A DNA stretch of 64,000 nucleotides from Acetobacterium woodii DSM 1030 (lineage in GTDB: Bacteria > Bacillota > Clostridia > Eubacteriales > Eubacteriaceae): positions 2,841,732 through 2,905,731 of the forward strand of contig NC_016894.1 in the NCBI RefSeq assembly GCF_000247605.1. Reading direction: 5' to 3'. Below the pieces are notes generated by a model. It ran no database searches. It saw only the letters and a list, made by a program, of their open reading frames with translations, and was not told where the DNA came from. Of the stretch, positions 11,766-33,861 are shown in pieces; within the stretch, counting starts at the first letter, position 1, and every line of letters starts with the position of its first letter. Position numbers and translations under genes: made by a program.

Positions 11766-11931
11766 CGTTTTCATATGATTGCCGAATAACTTTCCGTAAA
11801 TTTAACGATATTCCTTAAATGTTTAATCATACCTTACTTTCGATTCGATCGTTCCTTTAAATTTTTTATTCATTTTTTACGAATTAAATGCTGGTTTGAA
11901 TATTAATTAAAAAATCAGACAAAAAAATAGC

Positions 11932-12153
11932 CTTCTCACAAAGGCATTTGAGGTTGTCGATAAACGACCGTACCGACCAATTGTTAATCTGTTGTATGCA
12001 CGCAATTCGTACAGTTGCAATCAAAGCTTTAGCTGTAGATAACCTTTTCGCGGCAACTGTTCGCCTTGAGGCACACAACATGATCGAACAATTGTCGGTA
12101 CTACGTTATCTTTTTTGACAGTCTGAAATGCCTTCTCGCAAAGGCATTTCAGA
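11932..12153. repeat. Long imperfect inverted repeat, copy 1 of an intergenic hairpin family
   Basis: This 222-base segment folds on itself. GTACCGACCAATTGTT (about 11970) pairs with AACAATTGTCGGTAC (about 12088-12102), GATAA (11959) with TTATC (12106-12110), and TACAGTTGC with GCAACTGTTCG nearer the loop. The outer edges carry AAGGCATTT-containing hairpins (right one TGAAATGCCTT/AAGGCATTTCA, about 12126-12153). It shares AACTGTTCGCCT with the element at 33690 and CCGANNAATTGTTAATCT with the one at 32738. It lies in the 503-base gap 11703-12205, downstream of pap. The 65-codon frame inside is an accident of the repeat. Confidence 0.8.
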
Positions 12154-17825: not shown

Positions 17826-17903
17826 GATTCGAGTAACTGGCTAACTTATAAAAGTCCCTTTAGCTTTGCGTCACTGTTTCACAACAGCTTTGCCCTCTAA
17901 TTC
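17826..17903 (-). promoter_or_regulatory. c-di-GMP-I (GEMM) riboswitch
   Basis: The minus-strand leader of the EAL gene contains the conserved GEMM blocks in order: AGAGGGCAAAG, a GNRA-capped hairpin CTGTT-GTGA-AACAG, GACGCAAAGCTAAAGGG, and GTTAGCCAGTTAC, closed by a P1 helix GAATTAGAG/CTCGAATC. The GGG before CAAA agrees with Vc2-type c-di-GMP aptamers. It ends about 25 bases before the GTG start. GUUACUC at its 3' edge can pair with the GAGGUAAC ribosome binding site, which suggests translational control. A perfect 8-bp inverted repeat CTGCAGAG/CTCTGCAG (17917-17953) lies just upstream. Confidence 0.9.
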
Positions 17904-18040
17904 AGTATATTTTATCCTGCAGAGTCATTCTTTCCTGTAGAAATCCTCTGCAGTTTTAAATCGTTCTATTTGTATTACTTATTTTTCTATACTGTATCAT
18001 ATTTGTAACAGTTTGTCTTGCGTTTGTTAGTAAACTTTTT

Positions 18041-32737: not shown

Positions 32738-32922
32738 AAACGCTCGCTATCAGAGCCATACCGATTAATTGTTAATCTTTGGGCAACGTCTAATTGGCTA
32801 TCTAAAATGCATCCGCTTGTCTGCTTCGCAATGCTCTGTGGTAACGGTTTTGCAAACCAAAGATAACAATTATCGATCCTGACTCTATCATTTTTCGCTT
32901 TTATCTTTGAGTAACGAGCGCT
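32738..32922. repeat. Long imperfect inverted repeat, copy 2, between tpiA and gpmI
   Basis: Outer arms AAACGCTCG/CGAGCGCTTT. The main arms TAATTGTTAATCTTTGG (about 32766-32782) and CCAAAGATAACAATTATCG (about 32858-32876) pair at nearly every position, with CTATCAGAG/CTCTATCA outside them. The core CCGATTAATTGTTAATCT is nearly the same as CCGACCAATTGTTAATCT in the element at 11932-12153. It fills the gap between tpiA and gpmI in the operon transcript. Confidence 0.8.
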
Positions 32923-33660: not shown

Positions 33661-33689
33661 TATATTCTCCTTTGATTTGTTTATTTTAG

Positions 33690-33853
33690 GCAATTGCGAA
33701 AATACCGTGAGCTTGGGGCCCAGTTTCGCACGAAACAATTTCTACACGGTACGGCGGACAGTCTGTGAACTGTTCGCCTACATGTTACAAAATTGTTTGT
33801 GAAAACTGCACCCCAAGCAACCGTTGTTCGGTGTTTTTTAATTACGCAATTAC
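33690..33853. repeat. Long imperfect inverted repeat, copy 3, between pgk and tpiA
   Basis: Outer arms GCAATTGCG/CGCAATTAC; central arms GCTTGGGGCCCAGTTTCGC against a matching strand ending CTGCACCCCAAGC; AAACAATTT/AAATTGTTT; and a capped tip GGCGGACAGT-CTGTGA-ACTGTTCGCC. The tip shares AACTGTTCGCCT with the element at 11932-12153. The whole 164 bases can fold into one long rod in the operon mRNA. Confidence 0.85.
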
Positions 33854-33861
33854 CTATCTGT

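What the first reader, a model, noticed from the sequence alone, without database searches (positions are those of the whole stretch)
11932..12153. Intergenic long-hairpin family with three copies in the window
The segments 11932-12153, 32738-32922 and 33690-33853 each fold into one 160-220-base imperfect rod. They are not merely similar in shape: copies 1 and 2 share CCGANNAATTGTTAATCT, and copies 1 and 3 share AACTGTTCGCCT near the tip plus AAACAATT...CGGTAC-like arms. None has coding capacity or a terminator-style T-run. This looks like a repeated structured element (MITE-like, REP-like or a structured RNA).
Basis: seen in the sequence. Interest (0 to 1): 0.7.

Follow-up and report, generated by a model that had tools for sequence, protein, structure and literature searches.

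The report
Mobile element that duplicates transcription terminators
The hairpin is one of dozens of copies of a small transposon that inserts into the stop signals of genes (transcription terminators) in acetogenic bacteria and duplicates the whole terminator hairpin as it does so, which seems to let it spread without breaking the signals.

Summary
The hairpins are real but are not one three-copy family. Copy 1 (element 11950-12125) belongs to F1, a 176-bp MITE with at least 43 places in its own genome and matches in 19 of 19 genomes of the genus, own included. Copy 3 (33687-33856) belongs to another MITE family, F3. Copy 2 is a decayed F1-type remnant.

F1's target-site duplication (TSD) is an entire intrinsic-terminator hairpin. 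In 48 of 100 copies examined a 17-29 bp direct repeat abuts the element ends exactly; its centre coincides with the hairpin axis (43 of 48 within 0.5 bp; random windows 82 of 779) and its length follows the stem. At six sites, 17 of 20 chosen orthologous regions in relatives are empty.

IS1182-family insertion sequences of the genus carry F1's outer 15-bp end, and two of three show the same hairpin duplication. IS1272, of that family, is known to target hairpins but removes them; a 2017 model drew duplication as an alternative. F1 looks like that alternative. An RNA function is not supported: 3 of 56 pairs show compensatory change.

The parts
11950..12125 (+). F1 element, 176 bp: A end GAGGTTGTCGATAAACGACCGTACCGACC.., B end (minus strand) CAGACTGTCAAAAAAGATAACGTAGTACCGAC..
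   Evidence: alignment of 30 copies, ends and length, alignment A1 of 27 copies
11926..11949 (.). left copy of the duplicated terminator hairpin (24 bp, AATAGCCTTCTCACAAAGGCATTT)
   Evidence: direct repeat anchored at the element end
12126..12149 (.). right copy of the duplicated terminator hairpin (24 bp, AAATGCCTTCTCGCAAAGGCATTT)
   Evidence: direct repeat anchored at the element end; folds as a 9-bp stem
11921..11927 (-). A-run = U-tract of the terminator for minus-strand transcription; its last two bases overlap the left hairpin copy
   Evidence: read in the sequence; A-tract scored beside the left copy, neighbouring ORFs both on minus strand
   Evidence: single copy in genome; F1-type inner boxes in the same gap in 4 of 14 relatives read, with a trace in a fifth
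33687..33856 (+).

Best explanation
F1 is a non-autonomous transposon (MITE) of the IS1182 group whose targets are intrinsic transcription terminators. SHOWN: it sits in a terminator hairpin with one complete copy of that hairpin on each side, so the target duplication is the hairpin itself, 17-29 bp as the hairpin dictates; relatives without the element carry one hairpin at the site; IS1182-family elements in the same genus have the same outer 15-bp ends, and two of three have the same kind of flanking duplication. [quoted passage not shown] gap repair then copies the stem-loop to both sides. INFERRED consequence: the left copy keeps the A-tract and the right copy keeps the T-tract, so termination survives and the insertion is close to neutral. 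The element's own rod would then be a by-product of its long inverted arms and not an RNA under selection.
For: 43 or more places in the own genome, fragments and chimeras included; matches in 19 of 19 genomes of the genus, own included. Of 100 copies examined, 48 (23 of 43 own) have an ungapped direct repeat exactly abutting both ends; in the first 82 copies 43 did, and 0 of 1622 mispaired left/right flanks reached that score. The better of the two hairpin copies folds at -5 kcal/mol or lower in 43 of 48; counted singly, the left copy does in 38, the right in 40, both in 35, against 8.7% of same-length control windows. A-tract left or T-tract right in 43 of 48, control windows 17%. Pairing across the repeat is 0.80 in register and 0.31-0.43 when shifted by 1-6 bp. 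Best dyad within 0.5 bp of the repeat centre in 43 of 48, 41 of 48 with the right copy alone, against 82 of 779 random windows. Repeat length follows GC-stem span, Spearman 0.69, Pearson 0.48, n=45. 17 of 20 chosen orthologous regions lack the element. 0 of 44 assessable copies lie between divergent ORFs. Partner-type ISs of 1488 bp: L241 (474-aa ORF, IS1182 model 362.5 bits, cut-off 270) and L225, with F1's outer end and 22- and 20-bp palindromic duplications.
Against: 52 of 100 copies show no repeat over the threshold; many are decayed or truncated, but some have intact ends. The partner-type IS shares only the outer 15 bp with F1, not the inner GTACCGACAATTGTT box, and none of the six IS1182-model matches in the own genome has these ends. 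The third partner-type IS (L233) has a hairpin on each side but they do not match as a repeat, and the L225 site is AT-rich: 73 of 300 shuffles fold as well. In 8 of 28 tandem settings the tract is missing on the strand of the upstream ORF, and in 14 of 28 there is one on the other strand. Three outliers have a repeat shorter than the detected stem span. The 20 orthologous regions were picked from the listing largely because their gap lengths suggested an empty site, so 17 of 20 is not a rate; sites with larger gaps (for example L122 in G017, L077 in G009) were not fetched.
Confidence: 0.84

Rival explanations
1. Same MITE, same terminator targets, but no folded DNA: the transposase cuts ordinary duplex DNA at a variable stagger, and only insertions that happened to duplicate the whole terminator survived selection.
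For: The duplication keeps a terminator, so selection would favour exactly these events.
Against: Selection needs the stem inside the repeat but does not centre it; the dyad lies within 0.5 bp of the repeat centre in 43 of 48 (random windows 82 of 779) and the length follows the stem. Other IS1182 subtypes in the genus also sit in palindromes but duplicate only 9 bp or nothing, which argues for structure as the cue.
Confidence: 0.25
2. The element is mobilised by an IS1202-like (ISNCY) transposase, known for unusually long TSDs.
For: IS1202-group TSDs of 16-28 bp (passages of PMC10132070); F1 ends contain TGTC five bases in, and ISAjo2-type ends are TGT; a decayed IS1202-like ORF exists in G017.
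Against: None of the 27 fetched loci with NF033594 matches (L126-L152) shows F1 ends beside the match at the cost limit used (one, L138, has a weak F1-like pair elsewhere in the locus). Of five plasmid loci with IS1202-like genes two gave a direct repeat, 17 bp and about 19 bp, neither a hairpin by inspection. F1's outermost bases are GAG/CAG, not TGT.
Confidence: 0.06
3. A structured RNA or RNA-processing element copied for function.
For: Strong folds; high copy number.
Against: 3 of 56 pairs have compensatory changes, covariation term -0.1; no Rfam family at these places; element absent at orthologous terminators in relatives.
Confidence: 0.03
4. No duplication: F1 inserts between two pre-existing tandem terminators, or the hairpins are part of a larger mobile unit.
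For: Hairpins sit at the same place at every well-kept copy.
Against: Hairpin sequences differ from locus to locus but match across each element; of 17 orthologous sites without F1, 15 have one hairpin by a lenient count and two have two matches to a 19-mer, with the gap length of about one copy.
Confidence: 0.02

Closest known systems
IS1272 / TnSha1 (IS1182 family), PMC4923244 and PMC5678879
   Same: Targets are stem-loops without sequence consensus, some of them terminators; transposase of the IS1182 family; 16-bp terminal inverted repeats (passages read).
   Different: IS1272 deletes or replaces the stem-loop and leaves no TSD; F1 and two partner-type ISs keep and duplicate the whole stem-loop.
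Pathway b of the structure-dependent transposition model, PMC5678879, Fig. 13 legend and Discussion (first of two parts read)
   Different: In the text read it is a drawn possibility without an example; F1 supplies dozens of candidate instances and empty sites.
IS1202 family, long-TSD group (PMC10132070 and PMC10045372, passages)
   Same: Unusually long TSDs of overlapping length.
   Different: Different transposase and ends; no target found there; the two repeats seen here are not hairpins by inspection.
Group IIC introns (recalled, not tested)
   Same: Insert at intrinsic terminators recognised as hairpins.
   Different: Ribozyme and reverse transcriptase, inserted beside the hairpin, no TSD.
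REP/REPIN sequences with RAYT (recalled)
   Same: Intergenic palindromic repeats moved in trans.
   Different: Much shorter, single-strand mechanism, no TSD.

Membership tests
MITE (kind of element) | short, high copy, too short for a transposase | tested here: met
   176 bp (other lengths between 93 and 251 bp in relatives), 43 or more places in own genome
MITE (kind of element) | terminal inverted repeats and target-site duplication | tested here: met
   empty sites
MITE (kind of element) | moved in trans by a related IS transposase | not testable with these tools
   only shared ends and shared insertion mode
IS1182 family (as a non-autonomous derivative) | ends shared with an IS whose transposase is IS1182-type | tested here: met
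   15-bp outer end, 0-1 mismatches at both ends of L241, L225, L233; L269 ORF (same place as L241) matches NF033551 at 362.5 bits, cut-off 270
IS1182 family (as a non-autonomous derivative) | insertion into palindromic stem-loops (reported for some members) | tested here: met
IS1182 family (as a non-autonomous derivative) | homology to the partner IS beyond the terminal repeat | tested here: not met
   the 40-44 nt end models found nothing in L223-L252; not required for a MITE but leaves the exact partner open
IS1272 subgroup | stem-loop removed, no TSD | tested here: not met
   stem-loop kept twice
IS1202 family | 5'-TGT at the outermost end, IS1202-type transposase | tested here: not met
   outermost bases GAG/CAG; no such transposase found beside F1 ends
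Structured RNA family | compensatory base changes | tested here: not met
   3 of 56 pairs, covariation term -0.1; no Rfam match there
REP / REPIN | 20-40 bp palindromes, no TSD, RAYT transposase | tested here: not met
   176 bp with a TSD; RAYT not searched; definition partly recalled

The most novel reading that the evidence does not exclude
F1 and its IS1182-type partner show that a DDE transposase can read a folded target: the two strand-transfer sites are fixed at the feet of an extruded hairpin, so the length of the target duplication is set by the target's secondary structure and not by the enzyme. Within one genus, IS1182 subtypes would use different attack points (feet: whole-hairpin duplication; loop: 9-bp duplication; apex: no duplication), which would make the family a natural series for cruciform-directed transposition that spares host terminators.
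Probability: 0.5. Interest if true: 0.75.

Novelty: new variant of a known kind. Interest (0 to 1): 0.56.

Why it matters
Target duplications are usually taken as a fixed fingerprint of a transposase. Here their length follows the target hairpin, which is what a folded-target model predicts and a simple duplex model does not. The case makes a model that was only drawn for IS1272 testable with a small element, natural target variants and known empty sites. It also shows a way to be harmless: landing in a terminator and duplicating it leaves a stop signal in place, which could explain how dozens of copies persist in a compact genome. For users of acetogens it annotates a common intergenic repeat that may add a long rod to many 3' ends.

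Tried and rejected
IS1202/ISNCY partner: the five NF033594 matches in the own genome are copies of a ~3-kb repeat carrying TnsB- and TnsC-like ORFs (my reading of the ORFs), with other ends; fetched genus matches carry no F1 ends beside them. A bipartite pattern with wrongly counted spacing gave 2 matches and 1 in its control, no information. blastn found no F1 in plasmid and phage records at E 1e-5. Unpaired F1 ends in the own genome turned out to be chimeras with F3 or truncations. The first attempt at correlating hairpin span with repeat length let stems run into the flanks and was redone. G018/G010 copies were mostly too old for clean repeats. The first extraction of the window copy's site in relatives missed reversed loci and was completed. 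Paper searches for terminator-targeted MITEs or ISs showed none in the rows listed; searches with IS1182 led to the two IS1272 papers; a search with six terms including family names found nothing; Acetobacterium searches listed nothing on these repeats in the rows shown. These searches cover only the open library and the rows shown, so absence in print is not claimed; a review that I looked up by DOI (Siguier et al., cited by both IS1272 papers; the DOI is recalled) is not held.

Full report
Observation. The three segments fold as rods, the first and third far better than shuffles, the second weakly (z -7.0, -6.4, -2.6). Searching it splits the three. Copy 1 has 40 places at 83-100% identity (40 of 62 candidates scored), and end patterns add three more. 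Copy 3 has 40 other places (40 of 176 candidates scored). Copy 2 has no further copy. So there are two families, here F1 and F3, and a remnant.

Anatomy of F1. Alignment of 30 copies with flanks shows a conserved 176-bp unit with ends GAGGTTGTCRATAAACGACC.. and, on the other strand, CAGACTGTCAAAAAAGATAAC.., followed inward by a common box GTACCGACAATTGTT. In the window it occupies 11950-12125. Relatives have other lengths with the same ends, for example 93, 141-143, about 160 and 225-251 bp. All 19 genomes searched in the genus, own included, have matches.

The flanks. At well-kept loci the sequences left and right of the element are near-identical short palindromes that differ from locus to locus. 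For 100 copies (43 own; 39 of 48 relative loci with both ends recognised; 18 of 20 loci) I asked, without using symmetry, for an ungapped direct repeat exactly abutting both ends. 48 pass (23 of 43 own), length 17-29 (mean 23.5, sd 2.5), mean identity 0.889. With the first 82 copies 43 passed, and 0 of 1622 mispaired flanks did. Most relative copies were taken from best hits, which favours well-kept ones, and 52 copies do not pass.

The repeats are terminators. The better of the two copies folds at -5 kcal/mol or lower in 43 of 48; singly, 38 left and 40 right copies do, 35 both; control windows 8.7%. 43 of 48 have an A-tract before the left copy or a T-tract after the right copy, against 17% of control windows. 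Using long ORFs as stand-ins for genes, 0 of 44 assessable copies lie between divergent ORFs (16 convergent, 28 tandem, 4 undetermined). In tandem settings a tract is on the strand of the upstream ORF in 20 of 28, and on the other strand in 14 of 28; of 16 convergent settings 8 have both tracts and 14 at least one. In the window both neighbours are on the minus strand and the A-run at 11921-11927 is their U-tract; transcripts coming from the right would now carry the rod and end at the left hairpin (inference).

Structure sets the repeat. Pairing across the repeat averages 0.80 in register and 0.31-0.43 when the window is shifted by 1-6 bp either way. The best dyad lies within 0.5 bp of the repeat centre in 43 of 48 when the better copy is used and in 41 of 48 with the right copy alone, against 82 of 779 random windows. 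Repeat length follows GC-stem span (Spearman 0.69, Pearson 0.48, n=45, with three outliers).

Empty sites. A query of flanks of nine copies was searched in 19 genomes. I picked 20 orthologous regions covering six of the nine sites, mostly because their gap lengths suggested an empty site, so the count is not a rate; larger gaps such as L122's in G017 and L077's in G009 were not fetched. 17 of the 20 lack F1 ends and have about the length of a single-hairpin site (within 13 bases of the prediction, one 31 longer); 15 of these hold one hairpin match and two hold two at a lenient threshold for a 19-mer. Of the other three, G008 carries an F1 of another length at the same terminator, G010 an unrelated insertion between two hairpins, and G011 lacks F1 ends but is longer and was not resolved. 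At the window copy's own site six relatives could be read: none has F1 ends, and each has a terminator-like hairpin there by inspection, but of another sequence, so that site is consistent without being an exact empty site.

The mobiliser. An IS1202-type transposase was the first idea because of its long TSDs, and it failed. The literature pointed to IS1182: PMC4923244 (passages) reports that IS1272/TnSha1 targets hairpins, including terminators, and deletes part of the target; PMC5678879 (abstract, passages and the first part of the Discussion) reports stem-loop replacement and draws alternative pathways, one of which (attack at the 5' feet) would duplicate the whole stem-loop. The IS1182 model NF033551 matches in 17 of 19 genomes. 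Three of the loci fetched, in G016, G017 and G013, are bounded at both ends by F1's outer 15 bp with 0-1 mismatches. Two of them, each 1488 bp, are flanked by palindromic duplications of 22 bp (one mismatch) and 20 bp that abut the ends exactly; the third, 1474 bp, has hairpins on both sides that do not match as a repeat. The G016 ORF has 474 aa with DUF772 and DDE domains and passes the IS1182 cut-off; the G017 frame has a stop inside. All six IS1182-model matches of the own genome were looked at and none has these ends, so F1's mover there is absent, lost or more diverged.

Other IS1182 subtypes in the genus behave differently but also use palindromes: a GGGACC-ended subtype shows a 9-bp duplication within a palindrome in 3 of 4 cases, and a GGGGCTGTCGGG-ended one sits at the apex of palindromes without duplication in 2 of 3 (the third runs off a contig). 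For two further subtypes the picture is weak, and several of the reconstructed sites fold no better than a fair share of shuffles.

Not an RNA. On 27 aligned copies the consensus fold has 56 pairs; 3 have a compensatory change and the covariation term is -0.1 kcal/mol. Rfam has no match at these segments.

Copy 2 and F3. In 4 of 14 relatives whose gap between the tpiA-like and gpmI-like genes was read (among them A. dehalogenans and A. fimetarium), with a trace in a fifth, the gap holds F1-type inner boxes that align with the window's copy 2, so copy 2 is best read as an old insertion. F3 is a 171-bp MITE with ends TAGGTAATTGCGAAAAT; 26 of 27 copies examined reach a repeat score of 6 or more, at 9-13 bp (mostly 10-12), against 21 of 702 mispaired flanks. 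Its mover was not sought. F1 and F3 share the tip AACTGTTCGCC, and two chimeras joined near it exist.

Verdict. F1 is a new MITE family of the IS1182 group. Its notable property is duplication of a complete terminator, which matches a pathway that, in the text I read, was only drawn. That the transposase reads a folded target is the best reading but remains inference.

Noticed in passing
window 33687-33856; L031-L050, L065-L070: F3 family: 171-bp MITE, ends TAGGTAATTGCGAAAATG, mostly 10-12 bp TSD, 40 or more copies; several sit just upstream of a Shine-Dalgarno-like sequence. Partner IS unknown.
   Followed up: partly
L061 1530-1686 and L059 1506-1687: Chimeras: F3 left part joined to F1 right part, and F1 left part joined to F3 right part, near the shared tip AACTGTTCGC. 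Not reciprocal by their flanks.
   Followed up: partly
L226, L227, L252, L232, L242: Other IS1182 subtypes of the genus sit in palindromes with a 9-bp duplication or with no duplication.
   Followed up: partly
L077 flanks: The two hairpin copies (AAGCACCCGATGGGTGCTT / AAGCACCCATCGGGTGCTT) are reverse complements of each other, so one copy may have inverted after insertion.
   Followed up: no
L213 about 310-520: In G010 the terminator used by F1 in G018 holds a different insertion, about 170 bp, again between two hairpin copies.
   Followed up: no
L216 about 296-504: In G008 an F1 of another length occupies the same terminator that a 232-bp F1 occupies in G004: shared ancestry or a hot spot.
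   Followed up: no
own genome 148424, 1663860, 2006555, 3942219, 3963009: Five copies of a repeat of about 3023 bp with TnsB-like and TnsC-like ORFs and ends TGTTAATTAG.
   Followed up: partly
window 17829-17904, minus strand: c-di-GMP-I riboswitch (Rfam RF01051, 53.9 bits).
   Followed up: no
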